Source: Haloferax marinisediminis
GTDB taxonomy: Archaea > Halobacteriota > Halobacteria > Halobacteriales > Haloferacaceae
Length of the DNA: 64,000 bases
Assembly (NCBI RefSeq): GCF_009674585.1
Contig: NZ_WKJP01000001.1
Span: forward strand, 1,116,001 to 1,180,000
Reading direction: 5' to 3'
Below the pieces are notes generated by a model that saw only the letters and a program-made list of their open reading frames with translations, had not been told where the DNA came from and searched no databases. This document shows, in pieces, positions 15,432 to 32,158 of the stretch. The translations under genes and the position numbers were made by a program. The number at the start of each line of letters is the position of its first letter. Position 1 is the first letter of the stretch.

Positions 15432-16226
15432 TTAGCCCAGTTTGTCGTAGGTCTGCTGCTGGGACTTCCAGTAGAGGAAGCCACCTGCGAGCAGCGCGAC
15501 GACTACGAGTCCACCGGCGGCGTAGATGAGTAGTTGCGTCGTCTGACTCGACTGCTTCGCCTGGTTCGCGCGGGTCTCGGCTTCCTCTGCGAGGGTGGTC
15601 GCGAGGCCGAACTCGGCGCCTTCGTAGGCTTCGACAGCGTTGTTGAACGACTGCTGTGCTTCTTGGGTGTTGGAACCACTGGCGGCCGCGATGGCTGCCT
15701 TCGCACTGTCGAGTGAGTCGCGTGCGGCGGCGCTCTCTTCAGTGTAGTGGGTCGCGTTCCACGTGCCGATATCGTTACTGGAGCCTCCTTCGCGGGTCTG
15801 AGCGAGCGAGAGGACGGTGAACTCCTGTGCCGGGTCGTAGGTGAACTCCTCGACCTCGGGCACCGTTCCGGTCACCGAGACTTCGACTTCGCTCGTTCCG
15901 TCGTCAGCGGCGATTTGCGCCCCGCTGAAGTTCTGCCCGTCGAAGGACTGCTGGTCGACTTTCGCGCCCGTCTGGTCGTAGTACGTGACGGTCCACGTCA
16001 CGTCTTCGAGGTGGGTCTGTCCTGCAAGCGTCCACGCTTCGAGTTGCGGGTCCTTGTACAGTTCATCGAGGGTGACCGATGCGGTCACCTTCGAATCGAC
16101 CTGCGCCTCGGAGGGCGTGTCCTCAGAGGCGACGCTCACGGCGCCTGCCGGAATCGCAGCGACCGACAGGAGCACGACGAGCGCGAGCGCCAGCTTAGAA
16201 AAGCGACTCCAGTTCGTCCTCGTCAT
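15432..16226 (-). CDS. Exported, C-terminally anchored protein of unknown function
   Basis: 264 residues from ATG 16226. A hydrophobic Sec-type signal (about 10-29, ending A-G-A-V) is followed by an extracellular region: first a beta-rich part (about 35-140), then an Ala/Gln/Glu-rich helical part (about 170-225). A single transmembrane helix (about 231-252) precedes a short basic tail, giving type I topology with most of the protein outside. The helical part looks like a coiled coil. Its start lies inside the last 32 bases of cetZ1, and its stop is 6 bases before cofC, so it is tightly linked to both. Family unknown to me; conserved haloarchaeal type by appearance. Confidence 0.75.
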   Translation of the reverse strand: MTRTNWSRFSKLALALVVLLSVAAIPAGAVSVASEDTPSEAQVDSKVTASVTLDELYKDPQLEAWTLAGQTHLEDVTWTVTYYDQTGAKVDQQSFDGQNFSGAQIAADDGTSEVEVSVTGTVPEVEEFTYDPAQEFTVLSLAQTREGGSSNDIGTWNATHYTEESAAARDSLDSAKAAIAAASGSNTQEAQQSFNNAVEAYEGAEFGLATTLAEEAETRANQAKQSSQTTQLLIYAAGGLVVVALLAGGFLYWKSQQQTYDKLG

Positions 16227-17382
16227 CGTTTATGAGGTTCTCCAAATTGGACTCGCTCTCCTGACGAATCTCCTCGATGTTGTCTTGCGCCTCGATGGCG
16301 ACCTGCTGCAGTTCCTTGATGCGGGGCACGTTTGCCACTCCAGAGAGGAGGATGACACTCGCGACCTTTCCGGCGCCCGGAATCGGGTAGTCCCCACCGC
16401 GAACTTCCATGGAACCGGTCTGCTCCTCGATCCATTTCCGCCCGCGCTCTATGCCTTTCCGGTTCAGATGCTCCGGCGGGCCAGCGAGGACGAGCAGTGC
16501 GCGTTCGGCGCCTTCGATCTCACAGGGGAGGGTGAGGCGGCCGAGCGCTGCCTTGCGGACGAGGCTGGTGATACGGTTCGTCGTGTGTGCGGTGTCGAGG
16601 TTGTCGTCTGGCTCGTCACCGCCGGTGAGTCGCGACAGGAGGCCGCCACTCTTCTTCTTCCGTGGTTCGACGCCTTCGGACGCGTAGCCGACAGTCGAGA
16701 CGCCGCCGCCGGCCAGCGTGTTGATGATCTCAGACGAGTCGACGACGGACTCTGCGACTTCCTGTCCGTCTTTGACTTCGCCAGCACCGAAGAGGACGCC
16801 GAAGCGGTTGACGATCTCGTCGTTGATTTCGTCGTAGCCGCCCTGGACGGACTCGCCGGTCTTCCGCCACGCGTCGTTGTCGAACACGAGCAGATTGTCG
16901 ACCTCGCGGACGAACGTCTGGAACGACCGTGCGGCGTTCAGGGTGTAGATGCCACCCTCGTCCGATCCCGGCAGGATGCCGAGACCGTAGACAGGTTCAG
17001 TGTAGATACGTTTGAGATGTTTCGCAAGGACTGGCGCGCCACCGGACCCGGTACCGCCACCGAGACCGGAGACCACGAGGAAGGCATCGACTTCGTGGAC
17101 AGGGATGCTGTCGATGGCACCCTGTACCTCATCGATGTCTTCTTCGGCGATTTCCGCACCGAGTTCGTTGTCCGCACCGACACCATGTCCCTTTACGCGG
17201 GACTGGCCGATGAGAACGCGCTGGTCCTTCGGGATATTCTTCAATCCGAGCAAGTCGGCTTTCGCAGAGTTAACTGCGACGGCGGCGCGAACGATTCCGG
17301 CGTTTCGTTCGCGGTCGTACTCGACGAATTTGTCGACTACTTTTCCCCCGGCTTGCCCGAATCCGATCATTGCGAGCTTCAT
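16195..17382 (-). CDS. cetZ1: Tubulin-like cell-shape GTPase CetZ1
   Basis: 395 residues. CetZ1 is the haloarchaeal tubulin/FtsZ-superfamily protein needed for rod shape and motility in Haloferax; it polymerises under the membrane. The GTP-binding T4 loop GGGTGSG is intact at about 108-114, and the T7 catalytic region VDSSEIINTL places a glutamate at residue 218, the position I recall as the catalytic acid of Haloferax CetZ1. The C-terminal tail is acidic. The sequence is very close to Haloferax volcanii CetZ1 as I remember it. Its last 32 bases overlap the next gene on the same strand. Confidence 0.93.
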   Translation of the reverse strand: MKLAMIGFGQAGGKVVDKFVEYDRERNAGIVRAAVAVNSAKADLLGLKNIPKDQRVLIGQSRVKGHGVGADNELGAEIAEEDIDEVQGAIDSIPVHEVDAFLVVSGLGGGTGSGGAPVLAKHLKRIYTEPVYGLGILPGSDEGGIYTLNAARSFQTFVREVDNLLVFDNDAWRKTGESVQGGYDEINDEIVNRFGVLFGAGEVKDGQEVAESVVDSSEIINTLAGGGVSTVGYASEGVEPRKKKSGGLLSRLTGGDEPDDNLDTAHTTNRITSLVRKAALGRLTLPCEIEGAERALLVLAGPPEHLNRKGIERGRKWIEEQTGSMEVRGGDYPIPGAGKVASVILLSGVANVPRIKELQQVAIEAQDNIEEIRQESESNLENLINDDEDELESLF

Positions 17383-23124: not shown

Positions 23125-25461
23125 TCACTCGTGGTCCGCGCCCGACCCGTCGGTCGCAAGTTCGGCCATCGTGGGCGACGACACCGTCTCTGCTGTGCTC
23201 GCGCTCCGTGTTTCTCTGTCTTCTTGCCTGCTCACGGCATCGCTGTCGTCGCCGTCTGCTTCTGACTCGCGACTCGGTTCAGTCTCGGCTCCCTCGGTTC
23301 GGACCTCGAACCGGTCCGCGAGCGACCGAAGTTTGTCCGTGGTCGTCGAAAGCTCCTGCATCTGGCCGGCGACGCCAACCATCACGTCGTTCTGGTCGCG
23401 TGCAGCACTGGCGACGTCTGCCGCGTCGGTCTGCGTCTCGGACGCGATTTCGGCCGCTTCGTCGGCGAGACGAGCGACCGATTGTGCGGCCGTCGCCTGC
23501 GAGGCAGTCGCTTCGTCGATTGCAGCGACGCCGTGGTCGACTTCTTCGAGCCGTTCGACTGCTTCGTCGATAGCGTCGACACTCTCGGCGACCGTCTCAG
23601 CACCAGTCGAGACGCGCTCTCGTGCGGCGCGAACGTCGGCGACAGTCCCGTCTGCTGCCGTCTCGACTGCCTCGATGGACTCTGCGATTTCATCCGTCGC
23701 CTCGCTCGTCTCCTCTGCGAGGGCTTTCACACTGTCGGCGACGACGGCGAATCCTGCGCCGGCCTCGCCCGCCCGTGCGGCCTCGATAGACGCGTTCAGT
23801 GCGAGCAAGTTGGTCTGGTCTGCGATGTCGCCAATGAGGTCCACCACGTCGGCGATGTCGGCGACGTCTTCGCGGAGCGTCTCAGCACCAGTTGCCGCGG
23901 CGGCGACTCGGTTGTCGATGGCGTCCATCTCTTCGTGGACGGCAGCGCTCGCGTTACGCCCGGTCTGGCCGTACTCACTGGCGTCACTGGAGAGCTTGGC
24001 GAGTTCGTCGGCGGAGGCCGCAACCTCTTCGACAGTCGCCGACAGGTCTTGCATCTCCGCAGAGACGTCGTCGAGAAGCGCCGCCTGCTCGGCTGCCCCT
24101 TCGGAGATGTCCGCAGTTCCGTGTTCGACTCGATCGGATGCTGCAGTGACCTCTTCGGTTCCGGCAGTGACGCGTTCACCGGCGGTGTCGACGGTGGTCG
24201 CGAACGTCGCAACCTGTCCAATCGTCTCTTCGAGGTCGGTGAGCATCGCGTCGATCCCGTCGCCGACGCCGGCCATCGCCTCGTCGTCGGGCGTGACCGA
24301 CGTGCGGACCGTCAGGTCGCCGTCCGCGGCGTGGTCCATCGTCTCTCGGTAGTCGGCCGCGGCGACTTCGAGGTCACGCCGAGCGTCCTCAGCGGCTTCG
24401 ATACGGTCTCGAAGTGTGTCGCGCATGTCTGCAAACGCGTCAGTCAGTGCACCGAACTCGTCGAGTCGGGTGGTCGTGAGGTCGACGTCGAGGTCACCGC
24501 CCGCGAGCATGTCTGCCCGGGTTTGGAGACGGCGTAGCGAGACGACCGTCCCGCGACCGATGACGAGTCCCACGAGGCCGAGGCCACCGAGTGCGACGCC
24601 GATGAGGATGACGATGTCGCGCTCGACGAGCTGTGCGACTGCGTACGCGTTCTCGGGCGGTGTTTCGACGAGGACGGCCCATTCGGTTCCATCGACGGGT
24701 GCGTGTGCGACCACAGCACCGTCTCGTTCGACCACGCCAGCGCTCCCACCCATCGCGGCATCGAGCGCCGGTGTCTCGTCTCCGCCACGGTACTGCGTGA
24801 GGACGTTGCTGCCGTACTTGTCGAAGGCGACGACGCCCTCGGCGGTGACGACTCTCGTTCGCGACCCTTCGATTGGTTCGCTGAGCGTCTCGGCGTGTTG
24901 TGTCGCATCGACGACGACCATCACGGCGGCGTCTCGACCAGCGACGGGACTGAGGAAGGCGAGTCGTTCGCCACCACCGTACCGGTACACTTCGGAGATT
25001 GCGACTCCGTTCGGGTCGAGCATCGTCAGCGACCCGGTCGTCCACGACACGTCGAGGTCCTCGACAGTCTTGGACTCTAACACGCCGTCGGTGCTTCTGG
25101 TGATGTGACGATTCGACGGCTTGATGTAGTGAATCGCGAGAACTTCGTCTGGAAGATTCTTCTTCTCATAGCTGAGAGTGGTGTCGATTTCTTCTTCGCT
25201 TCCAGACCGGATTGCGTCGTACTCAGAGAGCATTCGGGCCGTCCTTGAGTATCCATCTAACCAACTCGACAACTCTTCTGCCTCCAAGGTTGCGGCCGTC
25301 TCGAGTTCGCTGTGCGCGTCTGCTCTGACCTCTTCTCCGACCATGTCGGTCACGTAGAGGCCAAATCCGCCCATTACCCCGGCGACGACCAATAGAACGA
25401 ACAGAAACTTCCGAAGGTAACTCCGTCTGAGTACCGCCGGCACTAACGTGGCGAGTCTCAT
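23125..25461 (-). CDS. Methyl-accepting chemotaxis-type transducer (Htr)
   Basis: 778 residues from ATG 25461. Membrane helix 1 is at about 18-38 ([19 protein letters not shown]), followed by an extracellular sensor of about 240 residues (Cache-like, with '[22 protein letters not shown]'), then helix 2 at about 285-305. A HAMP region, a second HAMP-like segment and a long methyl-accepting coiled coil follow, with the signalling tip '[32 protein letters not shown]'. It would sense an external signal and control CheA. The sensor type suggests small-molecule binding; the ligand is unknown. The C-terminal tail is acidic and Ser-rich. Confidence 0.93.
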
Positions 25462-25804: not shown

Positions 25805-26542
25805 CTACTCGCCTCGCTCTTCGACGCCGTCCCCGTCTGTTTCGAGCGCACGCTCGACACCTTCCGACTCGAGGTCTTCCAGCTCGGTTGGCGCGATTTT
25901 CTCTAGCGCACGTTCGCGTTCGCTGGTCACCGAGATATCGCGCATCCCGAGCGCGATGGCGGCGTCGAAGCACCGAATCGCCTCTTCGTACTGTCCCCGT
26001 TCTGCGAGGAAGAAACCCCGATTGTACCACGCGTGTGGGTGGCGCGGGTCGAGTTCGACCGCTCGCTCTGCGTGGTCGAGCGGTTCTGACGAGTCGCCGA
26101 ACTCCCAGAGTGCGTACGCGAGGTTCATCTCCGCCGTCGCGGCGTGTTCGTTGTCGTCGTCGATGCGCAGTGCCTCTCGCGCGGCACCGACTGCCTCGTC
26201 GTACTCTGCTAACTGGGCGTGGGCGACGCCTTTGTTCACCCACGCCTCCTGCGCTTCGGGAGAATCTTCGTCGGCGTACGCAATCGCACGTGCGAAACTA
26301 TCGACCGCCTGTTCGTACTCCTCGATCGCGACGTAAGCCAACCCGACTTCGATGAGTGCCGGGATGTCGACGTGCTCGGGGACGACCTGCGACTCGTCTA
26401 CGATGTCGGCGAGCACGTAGTCGTCGGTCGGGTCGACGAGTCGCGTGTTCTGCCGGAGTTCGGGAGGGTCGAGGTCGAATCCCTCGTACGGGTCGCCGAA
26501 CCCCGCTCCCTCAGAGTATCGGTGGTCACGTGTCGAGGCCAT
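25805..26542 (-). CDS. TPR-repeat protein
   Basis: 245 residues from ATG 26542 (a further ATG lies upstream). After about 60 acidic residues there are four or more tetratricopeptide repeats between about 63 and 205: 'LIEVGLAYVAIEEYEQAVDSFARAIAY', 'AWVNKGVAHAQLAEYDEAVGAAREAL', 'AEMNLAYALWEFGDSSEPLDHAERAVELDP', 'AWYNRGFFLAERGQYEEAIRCFDAAIAL'. TPR proteins act as scaffolds for protein complexes. The C-terminal 40 residues are acidic and probably disordered. Partners unknown; it lies 272 bases from the CetZ operon, divergently transcribed. Confidence 0.88.
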   Translation of the reverse strand: MASTRDHRYSEGAGFGDPYEGFDLDPPELRQNTRLVDPTDDYVLADIVDESQVVPEHVDIPALIEVGLAYVAIEEYEQAVDSFARAIAYADEDSPEAQEAWVNKGVAHAQLAEYDEAVGAAREALRIDDDNEHAATAEMNLAYALWEFGDSSEPLDHAERAVELDPRHPHAWYNRGFFLAERGQYEEAIRCFDAAIALGMRDISVTSERERALEKIAPTELEDLESEGVERALETDGDGVEERGE

Positions 26543-26677
26543 CCGTGAGTATTGGTGCGGAGACGACATAACGTGGTCGGACACCCAGTGAAAGCGGAGA
26601 GATACGTCTGTCGAGGACGTTCTGGGTCGGGTGAAAAATCACAATCCTGTCAGAAATCATGTCAATCGGCCACACGG

Positions 26678-26687
26678 CTTAAATACT
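26678..26687 (+). promoter_or_regulatory. TATA-like promoter of the tandem CetZ operon
   Basis: cttaaatact lies in a GC-rich stretch 128-137 bases before ATG 26815. If used, transcription would start near 26710 and leave a leader of about 105 bases, long for this organism. The leader contains short complementary segments (ggtg/cacc near 26692-26701) and a ggccctccgggc block that could fold. Confidence 0.5.
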
Positions 26688-26814
26688 GTCGGTGAGCACC
26701 GAAAATCAACTGGGTGGACTCTAATCCGCAGGGGGGTGACGGGTCGAAGCAATCGAACGGCCCTCCGGGCACGCGGGCAGTCGTAGAGACCAGACCTAGT
26801 GCAGGAACTTCACC

Positions 26815-27987
26815 ATGAAATTAGGCACAATCGGTGTCGGCAATGCGGGCAGCAAGATTGTCGACAAGATGGTCGAATTCGAATCGCTCACGAACCGAAA
26901 GCTCTGTCGTCACGTGATGGTCATCAACACCGCTCGGACAGACCTCACCAAACCGGACCACATCCCGGAGAACAGACGGGTGTTGATTGGTGATACGCAT
27001 CAGAAAGCCAAAGGTCACGGTGTCGGTGGCGACGTGGACGTTGGCGCGGAAGTCGCCAAGAACGACATGGACGAGATTCGGCGTGCGTTCGACGACGTAG
27101 ACATCCACGAAGTCGACGCGATTCTCGTCTGTGCGTCCCTCGGCGGTGGCACCGGCAGTGGTGCGGCACCAGTCGTCATCAAAGAGTTGCAGAAGATGTA
27201 CGACGAACCGGTGTACGGTCTGGGCGTTCTCCCCGGAAAGTACGAAGGTGGCCGTCCGGCACTCAACGCCGCCCGGTCGCTCCAGTCGTTCGTCAACAAC
27301 ACTGACAACTTCATCGCTTTCGACAACGACGCGTGGCGCTCGAAAGGCCAGACCGTCGGTGAAGGATACGAAGGGATGAACCGCGAACTGGCGACTCGTA
27401 TCGTCACCCTCCTCGGTGCAGGAGAGTACGACGAGGCCACCACCGCCGAGAACGCGATGGACTCCAGCGACATCATCCGAACGCTCGACACCAACGGCAT
27501 CTCGTCGATTGGCTACGCGTCGACGACGGTGAACAACAACGGAGATGGCCTGTTGAACCGTTTCCGCGAAGAACACGAAATCGAGGACACGACGAACTCC
27601 GCGGCGAAGATAAACGGGCTCGTCCGACGGGCCGTCAACTCCCGACTCACGCTCCCGTGTGAAGTCTCGAGCGCCGACCGGGCGTTGATCGTTCTCTCTG
27701 GACCACCGTCGGAACTCTCTCGGAAGGGGCTCGAGAGTGCCCGCGAGTGGATCGAAAAGGAAGTCGACACGGTGGAAGTGCTGGCCGGCGACGACCCCCG
27801 AGAGAACGCCTCTGCACTCTCGGCCGTGGTGTTGCTGTCGAACGTCACCGAGACGCCTCGAATCAAAGCGATTCAGGAGCAGGCGGTCGAAGCACAAGAA
27901 AAGATTGCCGAGCAGGAGGCCGTGCGCGAGGAAGAGATCGCGAACCTGATCAAGGATAAGGACGGCAAAATCGACCCGGTCATCTGA
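26815..27987 (+). CDS. CetZ-family tubulin-like GTPase, tandem paralogue A
   Basis: 390 residues. Same family as cetZ1 in this window: MKLGTIGVGNAGSKIVDKMVEF at the N-terminus, an intact GTP signature loop GGGTGSG (about 110-116), 'GLGVLP', 'LNAARSLQSFV', 'FDNDAW', and the T7 region MDSSDIIRTL with an aspartate at 219 where cetZ1 has catalytic Glu218. An acid is therefore kept. The C-terminal tail is a charged helix (EQAVEAQEKIAEQEAVREEEIANLIKD) rather than the acidic tail of CetZ1. It is the first gene of a three-gene unit with a second CetZ and a membrane protein. Not CetZ1; its role, such as positioning or shape control, is unknown. Confidence 0.9.
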   Translation: MKLGTIGVGNAGSKIVDKMVEFESLTNRKLCRHVMVINTARTDLTKPDHIPENRRVLIGDTHQKAKGHGVGGDVDVGAEVAKNDMDEIRRAFDDVDIHEVDAILVCASLGGGTGSGAAPVVIKELQKMYDEPVYGLGVLPGKYEGGRPALNAARSLQSFVNNTDNFIAFDNDAWRSKGQTVGEGYEGMNRELATRIVTLLGAGEYDEATTAENAMDSSDIIRTLDTNGISSIGYASTTVNNNGDGLLNRFREEHEIEDTTNSAAKINGLVRRAVNSRLTLPCEVSSADRALIVLSGPPSELSRKGLESAREWIEKEVDTVEVLAGDDPRENASALSAVVLLSNVTETPRIKAIQEQAVEAQEKIAEQEAVREEEIANLIKDKDGKIDPVI

Positions 27988-28039
27988 CCATGACTCCCGT
28001 CAATCGGGGGGGAGTGTACACCCTCCAGGGAGTGACGCG

Positions 28040-29317
28040 ATGAAGCTGGCAGTCATCGGAGTCGGTAATGCAGGTAGCCGAATCGTCAATCAGATGCTGG
28101 ACATCGAGCAGTCGTCCGGTCGGAACCTCTGTAACGGGAACACGCTGCTCGTCAACTCGACCAAACCGGCGTTCGACGCGCCCGAGCACGTGCCCGAAGA
28201 GCGCCGACTGACTATCGGCGACGTCTACTGGGAAGCAGACGGGTCTGATATCGATGGGAATCCCGACCTCGCGGCCGAAATCGCACGCGAAGAGAAGAAC
28301 GACCTCATCCGTGCGTTCGACCTCATCGAGTTCCACCAGATTCACGGCATCTTGGTCGTCGCTGGCCTCGGCCGCGGCACCGGTGGCGGTGCAGGTGCGG
28401 TCGTGATAGAGCAGCTGAAAGAGATTTGTGACGACCCAGTGTACGCCGTTGGCGTCCTCCCCAGCGATTCAGAGGGTGAGCAATCGTCGCTGAACGCGGC
28501 CCGGTCACTCCAGTCGTTCGTCGCCGCGGCAGACAACGTGATTGCCTTCGACAACGACGCCTGGGAAGACGACGACCACCCCGACGACGGGACACCGGAC
28601 TCGGCAGTCGACGAAGCGGAGTCTGGCGACGACGCATCAACTGACGACGATGCACCCGTCGCCAAAGACGACGCTGCCGGTGGAGACTACACACGCATGA
28701 ACGTCGAACTCGCCAAGCGACTCGTCACCCTGTTCGCAGCAGGGGAGATTCGCGGGAGTTCGGGCTCGGAGAATCTGATGGACCCGAGCGACATCATGCG
28801 GACACTCGACACCGGCGGCGTCTCGTCTATCGGATACGCGTCGGTGGACCTGCCACAACCCGGCGGCGTTCGTTCGTTGCTTCGGTCGGTCCAAGACCGG
28901 TTCTCCTGGATGCCGGAAGGCGATTGGGGCTCGGACCCCGAAATCGACGGTGACGACGGGGCGACTGACGCGGCGAAGATTAACAACCTCGTCCGACAGG
29001 CGGCCGATTCGAAACTCACGCTTCCGTGCGAAATCACGAGCGCCGACCGCGCTCTGATACTGCTCTCTGGCCCCTCTCGAACGCTCTCCCGGAAGGGCTT
29101 CGAGGGCGGCCGGTACTGGCTCGAACAGGAAGCGGACATCGTGGACGTGATGGCCGGAGACGAGCCACACGACCGAGCGACCGAACTCACCGTCGTAATC
29201 CTGTTCTCGAACGTAACCGACGTCGCCAGAATCGACGCGATTCAAGAGCGGGCCGTCGAGTATCAACACTCCCTCCGTACCGAAGGGACGCCAACCGGTA
29301 CGACCAACTCACAATGA
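28040..29317 (+). CDS. CetZ-family tubulin-like protein, tandem paralogue B, with altered GTP loop and acidic insertion
   Basis: 425 residues. It aligns along its length with the preceding CetZ (MKLAVIGVGNAGSRIVNQML, LNAARSLQSFV, FDNDAW, MDPSDIMRTL with Asp251 in the T7 region, KINNLVRQAADSKLTLPCEI). Two things differ. The GTP signature loop reads GRGTGGG (about 111-117) instead of GGGTGSG. About 35-40 extra residues, mostly Asp/Ser/Thr (roughly 176-215), are inserted just after FDNDAW. It may bind GTP weakly or act as a non-polymerising regulator of its partner. It starts 52 bases after paralogue A and ends in an ATGA overlap with the membrane protein. Confidence 0.9.
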   Translation: MKLAVIGVGNAGSRIVNQMLDIEQSSGRNLCNGNTLLVNSTKPAFDAPEHVPEERRLTIGDVYWEADGSDIDGNPDLAAEIAREEKNDLIRAFDLIEFHQIHGILVVAGLGRGTGGGAGAVVIEQLKEICDDPVYAVGVLPSDSEGEQSSLNAARSLQSFVAAADNVIAFDNDAWEDDDHPDDGTPDSAVDEAESGDDASTDDDAPVAKDDAAGGDYTRMNVELAKRLVTLFAAGEIRGSSGSENLMDPSDIMRTLDTGGVSSIGYASVDLPQPGGVRSLLRSVQDRFSWMPEGDWGSDPEIDGDDGATDAAKINNLVRQAADSKLTLPCEITSADRALILLSGPSRTLSRKGFEGGRYWLEQEADIVDVMAGDEPHDRATELTVVILFSNVTDVARIDAIQERAVEYQHSLRTEGTPTGTTNSQ

Positions 29318-30135
29318 GCGACCCAATCGACGAAGACTGGAATCAGACACCGTCGTGGCTTCCGAACTGGGTCGCCACTACGGCCACTGCAATGCGTATC
29401 GACCTGCGATGGATGCACGCGACGTGGATGGAGGTCGCATTCGCTCGGGGGCTCGAAGTCGACCACTCAGTGGTCGAAAACCGCAAACCCGAGAGTCCCG
29501 GTGGCGCGGTCGCCTACCGACTCTGGGCCGCAGTCGGCTTGCTCTTCCTCGCCGTCGCGTACCCAGTGTTCGTCTTGGGGCTCGCGATTCGATTCTACTC
29601 CCACCGAATCGACCGAATAACTGCGGGACTCGGCTTCGCCGGCGTCGCGCTGCTCTCGGTCGTCGTCTGGGGACTCTTCACCGCAGCGACGTACATCTCT
29701 CCCATCGCGTTCGAGGGGTTCGTCGCCGTCGCGGTTGCAGGTGTCGTCGCGACCATCGCTGCCGTCCTCGCGTTGTTCTTCACCAATAGTGGGGGACGAC
29801 CAACGACCGTCGCGCTCGGCTATCCGTTAGCTGTGACTGCGTTCTTCCTTCCGCCAGTCGTCGCGTCGCTCTACTCGCCGACCTTGGCGTCTATCGTCTT
29901 CCCGAGTTCGACGTCGCTCGCAATCTGGCTGTTGAACAACGTCCTCAATTTCGCCGGCATCGCCGCGTTCATTCGAGCGTCGTTCGAGTTGCAGGGGCTG
30001 GCGTACGTCGGAATGTGGTTCGGCCTCGCGGTTCCAGTCGGCTGGGTTCTCGGTGGCCTCGTCACACTCGTCGACAGCGTTCGGGAGTCCGGACCCTCGA
30101 ACCCAGTCGACGACGGCGGGTCCAGACTGTACTGA
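29314..30135 (+). CDS. Multipass membrane protein translationally coupled to the CetZ pair
   Basis: 273 residues from ATG 29314, which overlaps the TGA of CetZ paralogue B as ATGA. The first 60 residues are soluble and rich in Trp/Met (NQTPSWLPNWVATTATAMRIDLRWMHATWMEV). About six transmembrane helices follow between residues 70 and 250, and the short tail is polar. The soluble N-terminus is a natural place to bind a cytoskeletal partner under the membrane. The overlap and operon position suggest that it anchors or works with the CetZ pair; this is inference. No enzyme motif or transporter signature is visible. Confidence 0.85.
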   Translation: MSDPIDEDWNQTPSWLPNWVATTATAMRIDLRWMHATWMEVAFARGLEVDHSVVENRKPESPGGAVAYRLWAAVGLLFLAVAYPVFVLGLAIRFYSHRIDRITAGLGFAGVALLSVVVWGLFTAATYISPIAFEGFVAVAVAGVVATIAAVLALFFTNSGGRPTTVALGYPLAVTAFFLPPVVASLYSPTLASIVFPSSTSLAIWLLNNVLNFAGIAAFIRASFELQGLAYVGMWFGLAVPVGWVLGGLVTLVDSVRESGPSNPVDDGGSRLY

Positions 30136-30180
30136 CACCGGCTTTTCGGAGACTCTTCCCCTTTCGACTCTCGTCCCGAT

Positions 30181-30302
30181 GCATCGCTCTGCACGACGTT
30201 GTTCGCAGAGTCGAATGTGGAGAGACGAGAGTTGAACCTCACTCGCAACGAGTTGCTCGCTGGTTCAACTCTCTCTGGACGCATCGCTCTCTGCACGACG
30301 TT
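30181..30302. repeat. Direct repeat marking a duplicated tRNA-Leu 3' flank
   Basis: gcatcgctctgcacgacgtt at 30181-30200 recurs at 30281-30302 as gcatcgctctctgcacgacgtt. Similarity continues to the right of both copies: copy 1 reads tcgaatgtggagagacgaga then gttgaac, and copy 2 reads tcgatgcgggggacgaga then tttgaac, where copy 2 is the real tRNA 3' end. Copy 1 is thus a decayed copy of the tRNA 3' end plus about 35 bases of its downstream flank, displaced by about 100 bases. Confidence 0.65.
30227..30273. repeat. Perfect 12-bp inverted repeat between the duplicated flanks
   Basis: Arms gagagttgaacc (30227-30238) and ggttcaactctc (30262-30273) are fully complementary, with a 23-base loop that holds a smaller gcaac/gttgc pair (30245-30249 and 30252-30256). 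It lies downstream of tRNA-Leu on its strand and downstream of the CetZ-operon membrane gene on the other, so it could serve as a transcript end for either. The left arm includes part of the decayed tRNA T-arm. Confidence 0.6.
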
Positions 30303-30313
30303 CAGAGAATCGA

Positions 30314-30398
30314 TGCGGGGGACGAGATTTGAACTCGCGAACCCCTACGGGAGCGGATCTTAAGTCCGCCGCTTTTGGCCTGGCTCAGCCACCCCCGC
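30314..30398 (-). tRNA. tRNA-Leu (anticodon TAA)
   Basis: An 85-base class II tRNA read on the minus strand. Acceptor stem GCGGGGG pairs with CCCCCGC, discriminator A, no encoded CCA. Anticodon stem GCGGA/TCCGC encloses loop CTTAAGA, giving anticodon TAA. The long variable arm (CCC-GTA-GGG core) is expected for leucine. The T-arm has TTCAAAT in its loop. No intron. The sequence immediately downstream of its 3' end is duplicated about 100 bases away (30181-30237). Confidence 0.96.
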
Positions 30399-30439
30399 GC
30401 AGTTGACCGTATTCCGAGGGGAAGAAAAGTGCTTTCGTT

Positions 30440-30784
30440 TTACCAGTCGACAGAGAGGGACCCGTCGCCGTGTGGGTCCGGGGAGAGTTCCTCGTCGGTT
30501 CGGCGGTCGATGACGTGAATGACGCCGCGGCCTTTCTTCGCCGGACAGACCTCTGCAGCACGGATGTTCTCGTCGAGTTCGTCCTCGCCGATGAAGTACG
30601 ACTTGGCCCGCGCGAGGCCGGTTTCGAGATCCATCTCCCAGTTGTCGGCGACTTCCGCGCATCGACCGGCCCCGAAGCACTTGTTGGCCTCGAAGATTAT
30701 CTTGTACGGCTTTTCTTCGACTGGTGGGGCGTTCTCGTCGGTCCCGAAGTCGCTCGGCTTCGGTCGGTCGGACTCCTCGCTCAT
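30440..30784 (-). CDS. Ferredoxin with a three-cysteine cluster site
   Basis: 114 residues. The core 'YKIIFEANKCFGAGRCAEVADNWEMD' and 'AAEVCPAKKGRGVIHV' is a bacterial-type ferredoxin with only three cysteines: C36, C42 and C80. The spacing C-x5-C...C-P is that of 3Fe-4S ferredoxins (or a 4Fe-4S cluster with a non-Cys ligand), as in P450-associated ferredoxins. The N-terminal 25 residues are an acidic haloarchaeal extension. It is a small soluble electron carrier; partners are not adjacent. It lies downstream of the tRNA in the same orientation. Confidence 0.88.
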   Translation of the reverse strand: MSEESDRPKPSDFGTDENAPPVEEKPYKIIFEANKCFGAGRCAEVADNWEMDLETGLARAKSYFIGEDELDENIRAAEVCPAKKGRGVIHVIDRRTDEELSPDPHGDGSLSVDW

Positions 30785-30877
30785 CGCCGGTGGTTACAAC
30801 CCGGCGGACTTTGCGCTGTCGGTCGGTGGGCGCACACCCCCGGTGGGACTATCGGCACACAGACCCTACACAGAACG

Positions 30878-32158
30878 ATGGACGGTACCCCCCGCGAACG
30901 GTTCGGTGACCTCGTCCGCGCGGCCACGGCGAGCGAACGCCGCCGGCTCGTCGCCGACATCTGGGCCGCCCGTGGGTGGGAGACGACCGTCGAAAACTCA
31001 CTCGTCGTCGCTCGTCGTGGCCCCCAGACCGAACACGTCGCCATCGTCTCTGGGCGGTGGTTCGGTGTGCGCCCCTCGGTTCCAGACGACGCCGACGTGG
31101 TCGTCGCACTCGATACCATCCCAGCGTCCTCACCCGATGTTCGGATATTCTCGCTCGACGACCTCTACGAACTCGTCCGCTATGGCCTCCCCCTGGAGAC
31201 CGGTGACCACCTCGTCGAAACTCACTTCGGGGTGACGCTGGACGACGCTCCCAGTTCGGGACGCGGGGCGCGTTCGTCGTTCTCGGCGCGTTTCGATTCG
31301 TCTCGGTCCGTGCTCGTCGTCGTCGCCGTCGTCGCGCTCCTCGTCTTCGCCATCGTTGCGACTGCTGGCGTTCCGGGTATCGCTCCGCGACTGGGCGGTG
31401 GAACCGACGAGACGCAGCAGACGCAGCCCACGACACCGGTTCCGACAGCGACGCCCGAACCACGGGCCATCGCCCCCGGCGTGACGACGGCAGGCGTCGA
31501 GAACGCAACACTACTTGCCGATGCGCATCGGCGAGTCGTAGCGAACGAGTCCTATCGGTGGACGATTGGCTATCGTGAGTCGATCGCTGGCGACGAGACT
31601 GGCCGCGAAGTCGAAGTCGTCCACGTCGAAGAACCACACGTGTACAACTCGGAGGTCCAGCGCGTCAGTTGGTCTGGGCTCAGGGCGTATCCGCGGCCGA
31701 CTGCCTCCGAAGATTCCTACGCCGACGGGGCGATGCGGTACTCTCGACGACCAAACGAACCCGACGGCGTTGCCATCCGCGTTCTCGACCCAGAAGTGCT
31801 CGACGGACCGGGGAGGCATGCGATTCGTGCCGAACGCTACATCGGGTGGTATCTCTCGACAGAACGTTCTCGAGTGGTGAACTCGACAGTCGAAGATGGC
31901 GTCGAAGTCACCCGAATCGAAGGCAGTGGAAACGATTTCCCGCGCTCTCGTGACTACGAGTTCGTCGCATTCGTCGAAGAAAGTGGGTTCGTCCGGTCCA
32001 TGCAAGTCTCCTACGAGACGCGCGACGGACTCGGCGTCACCGTCTGGTTCGAATACGACGCAATCGGCAACACGACGGTGGAACCACCGGCGTGGCTTGG
32101 TCCCGAAGACCGGCAGACGACGCCGACCGGAGACCAACCGACGAATCAGACCGAGTGA
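30878..32158 (+). CDS. Membrane-anchored protein with nuclease-like N-terminus and extracellular C-terminal domain
   Basis: 426 residues from ATG 30878. Residues of about 1-125 ('RRLVADIWAARGWETTVENSLVVARRG...VAIVSGRWFGV...DVVVALDTIP...FSLDDLYELVRYG') resemble the Mrr/restriction-endonuclease-like fold found in other haloarchaeal proteins, but I cannot see a full D-x-n-(D/E)xK site. One transmembrane helix (about 146-167) follows, then a Thr/Pro-rich linker and an extracellular beta-rich domain of about 220 residues with 'WTIGYRES' and 'GWYLSTERSRVVNSTVEDGVEVTRIEG'. The outer part resembles haloarchaeal lipoprotein-type beta domains. The combination is unusual and the function unknown. Confidence 0.75.
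   Translation: MDGTPRERFGDLVRAATASERRRLVADIWAARGWETTVENSLVVARRGPQTEHVAIVSGRWFGVRPSVPDDADVVVALDTIPASSPDVRIFSLDDLYELVRYGLPLETGDHLVETHFGVTLDDAPSSGRGARSSFSARFDSSRSVLVVVAVVALLVFAIVATAGVPGIAPRLGGGTDETQQTQPTTPVPTATPEPRAIAPGVTTAGVENATLLADAHRRVVANESYRWTIGYRESIAGDETGREVEVVHVEEPHVYNSEVQRVSWSGLRAYPRPTASEDSYADGAMRYSRRPNEPDGVAIRVLDPEVLDGPGRHAIRAERYIGWYLSTERSRVVNSTVEDGVEVTRIEGSGNDFPRSRDYEFVAFVEESGFVRSMQVSYETRDGLGVTVWFEYDAIGNTTVEPPAWLGPEDRQTTPTGDQPTNQTE

What the first reader, a model, noticed from the sequence alone, without database searches (positions are those of the whole stretch)
26815..30135. Operon of two tandem CetZ-type tubulin homologues plus a coupled membrane protein
Seen: two CetZ genes in a row (52 bases apart) and a multipass membrane protein whose ATG overlaps the second CetZ stop as ATGA. 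They are distinct from cetZ1 in the same window. Known: CetZs shape haloarchaeal cells by polymerising under the membrane. Inference: a heteromeric tubulin-like pair, perhaps analogous to alpha/beta tubulin or FtsZ1/FtsZ2 specialisation, with its own membrane anchor. The Trp/Met-rich soluble N-terminus of the membrane protein could be the contact site.
Basis: partly seen in the sequence, partly recalled or inferred. Interest (0 to 1): 0.78.

Follow-up and report, generated by a model that had tools for sequence, protein, structure and literature searches.

The report
Paired CetZ tubulins plus membrane protein
Many salt-loving archaea carry two always-adjacent tubulin-like genes that arose by one old duplication and have since become unequal, and in this Haloferax they are joined to a membrane protein whose family is present, with rare exceptions, only in species that have such tubulins, which makes it a candidate membrane partner for this cytoskeleton.

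Summary
The three genes are real and exactly where described. A (26815-27987) and B (28040-29317) are CetZ proteins, distinct from cetZ1 (16195-17382). C (29314-30135) overlaps B by ATGA. A and B stay together in all 48 A-bearing haloarchaeal genomes found among 391, always in the order A-B on one strand, while most flanking genes change. The tree makes A and B sister clades from one duplication; single-copy A' relatives sit outside them. The two are asymmetric: A is slow-evolving, with an intact GTP pocket and a CetZ1-like tail; B evolves about three times faster, keeps both T7 acids in every sequence, has lost several pocket residues, and lacks the tail. I infer a heteromeric CetZ in which B's T7 loop completes A's GTPase site. 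C is not the pair's private anchor: its family occurs in 326 of 391 genomes, usually elsewhere. It nevertheless tracks CetZ: all seven CetZ-less genera lack C, two CetZ-less species carry only C remnants, and C sits next to CetZ genes in four arrangements. Interaction, polymerisation and anchoring are untested. I found no description of the tandem pair or of C; A may be an uncharacterised subfamily noted by Brown and Duggin (2023).

The parts
26815..27987 (+). A: CetZ protein, 390 aa, intact GTP-binding motifs (T1 GNAG) and conserved C-terminal tail
   Evidence: CetZ_C 219 bits; motifs and tail; clade A
27460..27471 (+). T7 catalytic-loop motif of A, DSSD (D216 to D219)
   Evidence: Both acids invariant in all A proteins
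27925..27984 (+). Conserved C-terminal tail of A, residues 371-390, resembling that of CetZ1
28040..29317 (+). B: fast-evolving CetZ paralogue, 425 aa, always directly behind A; T7 kept, nucleotide pocket partly eroded, no CetZ1-like tail
   Evidence: CetZ_C 166 bits; fold match to CetZ1
28568..28675 (+). Acidic low-complexity insert of B between T6 and H7, residues 177-212
   Evidence: Length 5 to 67 among B proteins, fixed at 10 in A and CetZ1; low confidence in the model
28781..28792 (+). T7 motif of B, DPSD (D248 to D251)
   Evidence: Both acids invariant in all B proteins
29314..30135 (+). C: integral membrane protein, 273 aa, about 6 TM segments, ATGA overlap with the end of B
   Evidence: family distribution
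29365..29439 (+). N-terminal helix of C (residues 18-42) before the first TM segment, holding conserved D30 and W38
   Evidence: Model; invariant columns
16195..17382 (-). cetZ1 of the same genome, a separate clade, for comparison
30314..30398 (-). tRNA-Leu(TAA) bordering the trio; present at the site with or without the trio in Haloferax

Best explanation
A and B are the two halves of a heteromeric CetZ system born by tandem duplication of a single A'-type CetZ. Shown: they are always encoded together in the order A-B, form reciprocal sister clades, and are asymmetric. Inferred: A is the GTP-binding, filament-forming subunit; B binds on top of A through its fully conserved T7 loop and helps hydrolyse A's GTP, but has a weakened nucleotide pocket of its own, so it acts either as the alternate subunit with one weak interface per repeat (as in alpha/beta tubulin, but by a different defect) or as an end cap that controls A filaments. 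The C family is a CetZ-dependent integral membrane protein shared by most haloarchaea, inferred to tether or regulate CetZ filaments at the membrane. In some Haloferax its only copy has become translationally coupled to the pair.
For: A-B tandem in 48/48 genomes, gap mostly -1 to 60 bases, most neighbours otherwise changing. Tree: A 99, B 100, A+B 99, A' 95 SH-aLRT; tree length 13.3 for B, 4.1 for A. Both T7 acids invariant in A and B, while T2/T3/T5 residues invariant in A and CetZ1 vary in B; log(B/A) rate is higher on the nucleotide face than on the T7/H8/H10 face, p 0.004. A keeps the CetZ1-like tail, B does not. C with CetZ: 324 both, 41 CetZ only, 2 C only, 24 neither; genus level p 6e-7. 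C occurs only with an A, A' or divergent CetZ in Halobacteriaceae (12/12 against 0/11), adjacent in 11, and only with the pair in Haloferax (5/5 against 0/9). C remnants at the ancestral site behind the aldo/keto reductase in two CetZ-less species with intact congeners.
Against: No interaction, structure of a complex, expression or phenotype was tested. B retains T1 glycines and most of T4, so it may still bind nucleotide; a plain count of degenerate invariant sites does not differ between the faces (20/41 against 7/20, p 0.41). C is adjacent to the pair in only 16/48 genomes, was not found in 41 genomes with CetZ including nine pair-less Haloferax, and is intact in G226, which has no CetZ. 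C's topology is unresolved and its fold matches nothing solved.
Confidence: 0.5

Rival explanations
1. A and B are two independent CetZ homopolymers kept side by side only for co-regulation; B is diverging under weak constraint and is not a partner of A.
For: CetZ copy number is high and varied in haloarchaea; B evolves about three times faster than A. Brown and Duggin 2023 (PMC9856176) consider many extra CetZs weakly conserved or redundant.
Against: B is never lost while A stays in 48 genomes, the order never changes, and the T7 acids and H10 region are conserved in B. The pair seems to move between families as a unit: G037 (f3) nests in g13, and G017/G061 (f1) nest with the Halobacterium pairs, in both halves of the tree.
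Confidence: 0.25
2. B is a dedicated end cap or nucleator of A rather than a lattice subunit (a sub-case of the best explanation).
For: B's nucleotide face is relatively less constrained than its T7 face, and it lacks the C-terminal tail.
Against: T1 glycines and most of T4 persist in B, and the face difference is moderate. The sequence data do not separate a cap from an alternating subunit.
Confidence: 0.2
3. C is unrelated to CetZ function; it is lost together with CetZ because both belong to a rod-shaped or motile lifestyle, and its position beside CetZ genes is chance or hitch-hiking.
For: Halococcus lacks CetZ, is coccoid and not reported motile (PMC9856176); the g41 and g69 genomes tested lack CetZ, C and archaellins.
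Against: Seven CetZ-less genomes keep archaellins, and C is gone or decayed in five of them; six CetZ-bearing genomes without archaellins keep C. Adjacency occurs in at least four arrangements, and the linked Cs fall in several separate lineages of the C tree.
Confidence: 0.25

Closest known systems
CetZ1 and CetZ2 of Haloferax volcanii (PDB 4b46, 4b45)
   Same: Same fold and Pfam CetZ_C domain; A shares T-loops and a C-terminal tail with CetZ1
   Different: A and B form a separate clade with A'; A and A' have GNAG instead of GQAG in T1, and the A/A'/B clade has Asp instead of Glu in T7; A and B are encoded as an obligate tandem pair
The third, uncharacterised haloarchaeal CetZ subfamily of Brown and Duggin 2023 (PMC9856176)
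   Same: Probably contains A: diverse Halobacteria, short branches (my inference; their member table was not readable here)
   Different: The paper's main text reports no tandem partner B and no linked membrane protein
Alpha/beta tubulin and BtubA/BtubB (comparison from general knowledge)
   Same: Duplication giving two fixed, asymmetric partners; one interface probably fully catalytic
   Different: In eukaryotic tubulin the silent interface comes from a changed T7 residue in beta; here both partners keep T7 and B's own pocket is eroded; no co-assembly shown
FtsZ1/FtsZ2 with SepF in haloarchaea (comparison from general knowledge)
   Same: Two tubulin-family paralogues plus a membrane-linked partner
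   Different: C is an integral membrane protein with about 6 TM segments that matched no Pfam or NCBIfam family; the CetZ paralogues are adjacent genes

Membership tests
CetZ family | CetZ_C (PF21011) and tubulin GTPase domains above cut-off | tested here: met
   A 219 and 112 bits; B 166 and 77 bits
CetZ family | Tubulin/FtsZ fold closest to CetZ | tested here: met
   B model against 4b46: TM 0.93 on target, E 1e-36; A by sequence to 4b46, E 1e-113
CetZ family | GTP binding, GTPase activity and polymerisation | not testable with these tools
   Motifs intact in A, partly eroded in B
CetZ1 or CetZ2 subfamily | Clusters with CetZ1 or CetZ2 in a tree | tested here: not met
   A, B and A' form a clade apart from both
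Alpha/beta-type obligate heteromer | Two reciprocally monophyletic partners always present together | tested here: met
   48/48 genomes; sister clades, SH-aLRT 99 and 100
Alpha/beta-type obligate heteromer | One interface catalytically silent | tested here: inconclusive
   B pocket residues drift while T7 is kept; rate test p 0.004 but site count p 0.41
Alpha/beta-type obligate heteromer | Physical co-assembly | not testable with these tools
   Only single chains could be predicted
Dedicated membrane anchor of the pair | C confined to genomes and loci with the pair | tested here: not met
   C in 326/391 genomes, adjacent to the pair in 16/48
CetZ-associated membrane protein (proposed here) | Presence depends on CetZ and genes are linked | tested here: met
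   Genus level p 6e-7; remnants after CetZ loss; four arrangements of adjacency; exception G226

The most novel reading that the evidence does not exclude
Haloarchaea evolved their own two-component tubulin: an obligate A-B CetZ heteropolymer with one nucleotide-dependent and one nucleotide-weak interface, independent of alpha/beta tubulin, and the C family is an integral membrane partner of the CetZ cytoskeleton, missed so far because the Haloferax lineages without the pair do not have it.
Probability: 0.3. Interest if true: 0.85.

Novelty: new variant of a known kind. Interest (0 to 1): 0.62.

Why it matters
How CetZ filaments attach to the membrane, and why haloarchaea keep several CetZs, are open questions (my own knowledge of the field). 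The pair offers a separate case of a tubulin-family protein splitting into two unequal partners. The C family gives a concrete candidate for a CetZ membrane partner; it was not found in the nine pair-less Haloferax genomes, so it may be invisible in the usual genetic model. Single-copy A' relatives still exist, so the step from one subunit to two can be tested directly.

Tried and rejected
C as a part specific to the pair: rejected, because the family is nearly universal. A known fold for C: no PDB match better than E 2, and Pfam hits to DUF2070 are weak (best E 0.025). A count of degenerate invariant sites as proof of a dead pocket in B: not significant, so only the rate comparison and specific residues are used. 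Placing C's N-terminus by the positive-inside rule: ambiguous. Direct repeats of the tRNA end around the trio as a sign of integration: none found. Motility as the cause of the C-CetZ correlation: checked with archaellins and not sufficient. Pairs on plasmids in PLSDB: no close B homologue, best 38% identity. Literature searches for CetZ with tandem/paralogue, heterodimer and membrane anchor gave no description of the pair or of C; the 'Halo.Tub' genes in quasi-tandem (PMC9871819) are reported not to match CetZ by C-terminal models, whereas B matches CetZ_C strongly.

Full report
Observation. A spans 26815-27987, B 28040-29317 and C 29314-30135, with a 52-base A-B gap and an ATGA overlap between B and C. 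A and B pass the Pfam cut-offs for CetZ_C and the tubulin GTPase domain; C matches no Pfam or NCBIfam family. cetZ1 is a separate gene at 16195-17382. The genus is Haloferax: A is 93-94% identical to genes of H. marinum and H. profundi.

Conservation of the pair. B searched against 391 Halobacteria genomes, followed by reading the loci, gave 48 genomes with an A gene, counting the window. B follows A on the same strand in every one, with gaps mostly between -1 and 60 bases. In G262 the contig ends inside B. Neighbours beyond the pair mostly change between lineages. The genera include Haloferax, Halorubrum, Halobacterium, Natrinema, Halovenus, Halohasta, Halonotius, Halopenitus and Halarchaeum. 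Nine of fifteen Haloferax genomes lack the pair.

Origin. In a tree of 87 CetZ proteins, A and B are reciprocal sister clades (SH-aLRT 99 and 100). Nine single-copy A' proteins (support 95) are their sister, and CetZ1 and CetZ2 fall outside. So one duplication of an A'-like gene made the pair. In both halves of the tree G037 (family f3) nests with the g13 pairs (family f1), and G017/G061 (f1) nest with Halobacterium pairs (f2), which suggests transfer of the pair as a unit (inference).

Asymmetry. Total tree length is 13.3 for B and 4.1 for A over nearly the same set of loci. The T7 acids (D216 and D219 in A numbering) are invariant in A and B. Residues invariant in A and CetZ1 in T2 (N38, D43), T3 (G67, H68, G71) and T5 (G145, G146) vary in B, while T1 glycines and most of T4 persist. 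The log ratio of B to A site rates is higher on the nucleotide face (mean 1.13) than on the T7/H8/H10 face (0.28), p 0.004; a simple count of degenerate sites is not significant (20/41 against 7/20, p 0.41). The faces were assigned from knowledge of FtsZ/tubulin structure, not from a modelled complex. A, A' and CetZ1 share a conserved acidic C-terminal tail that B lacks; B has an acidic insert between T6 and H7 of up to 67 residues. The AlphaFold model of B (mean pLDDT 81) matches CetZ1 best.

The membrane protein. C is beside the pair in 16 of 48 genomes: co-directional with a 4-base overlap in five Haloferax, convergent in eleven others. The family is much wider: 326 of 391 genomes have it, usually as one copy, and in most of the 20 free loci examined it follows an aldo/keto reductase with no CetZ nearby. 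It is therefore not specific to the pair.

C tracks CetZ. Presence across genomes: both 324, CetZ only 41, C only 2, neither 24. At genus level, all seven CetZ-less genera lack C, against seven of 79 CetZ-bearing genera (p 6e-7). Rechecking the 26 CetZ-less genomes with the Pfam model left 25 without CetZ; G216 keeps a fragment of cetZ1 with a stop, in the usual cetZ1 neighbourhood. With a C profile, G130 and G195, whose congeners have both genes, carry only remnants of C just behind the aldo/keto reductase. G226 is an exception: intact C without CetZ. In Halobacteriaceae, 12 of 12 C-bearing genomes have A, A' or a divergent CetZ, adjacent in eleven and 28 kb away in G035, and 0 of 11 C-less genomes do. 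In Haloferax, C occurs only with the pair (5 of 5 against 0 of 9; G262 left out because its contig ends in B). Linked Cs lie in several separate places of the C tree, whose base is poorly resolved. An archaellin control shows that C does not simply follow motility.

Unit of gain or loss in Haloferax. In pair-less Haloferax the genes that flank the trio here are still in order around the site; in one (L173) the TPR gene and the 114-residue ferredoxin are neighbours, so the trio comes and goes as a block. A tRNA-Leu(TAA) is found in this region in the window and in all ten other Haloferax loci examined, with or without the trio.

Mechanism. Established from sequence: obligate pairing, one duplication, unequal constraint. 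Inferred: B's T7 loop docks on A's nucleotide face and completes its GTPase site, while B's own pocket is weaker, making B an alternate subunit or a cap. Inferred with less certainty: C holds or regulates CetZ filaments at the membrane, perhaps through the tail shared by A and CetZ1. C's topology is unresolved: its model has a helix at 18-42 and about six membrane helices (mean pLDDT 76), matches nothing in the PDB, and charge counts do not settle orientation.

Relation to known work. Brown and Duggin 2023 (PMC9856176) describe CetZ1, CetZ2 and an unnamed third haloarchaeal subfamily, which A may belong to; the passages of their main text read here mention neither a tandem partner nor this membrane protein. 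Deletions of single cetZ genes change cell shape in H. volcanii biofilms (PMC10606840). The searches made here found no report of the pair or of C, but subscription papers and preprints are not covered.

Noticed in passing
L177:7427-7588 and L178:6549-7055: Remnants of the C gene behind the aldo/keto reductase in two species (G130, G195) that have lost all CetZ while congeners keep both.
   Followed up: yes
L179:7085-7468: Fragment of cetZ1 with a stop in G216, in the usual cetZ1 neighbourhood (epimerase-like and thymidylate kinase-like genes).
   Followed up: partly
L151:5582-7914: A highly divergent CetZ (35% to A, T1 GNGG) followed by a C homologue in G346, a possible deep branch of the A/B/A' clade.
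   Followed up: partly
window 26000-30800; L171-L176: In pair-less Haloferax the site between the TPR gene and the ferredoxin/tRNA-Leu is either empty (L173) or holds other genes, including a second transducer-like gene 38% identical to the one at 23125-25374, hinting at a variable spot beside the tRNA.
   Followed up: partly
L152:6191-10854: In G384 a CetZ2-like gene lies about 3 kb from the free C gene.
   Followed up: no
window 30470-32158: The long ORF downstream of C overlaps a ferredoxin-like gene on the minus strand (30440-30784), so its true start is probably near 30790.
   Followed up: no
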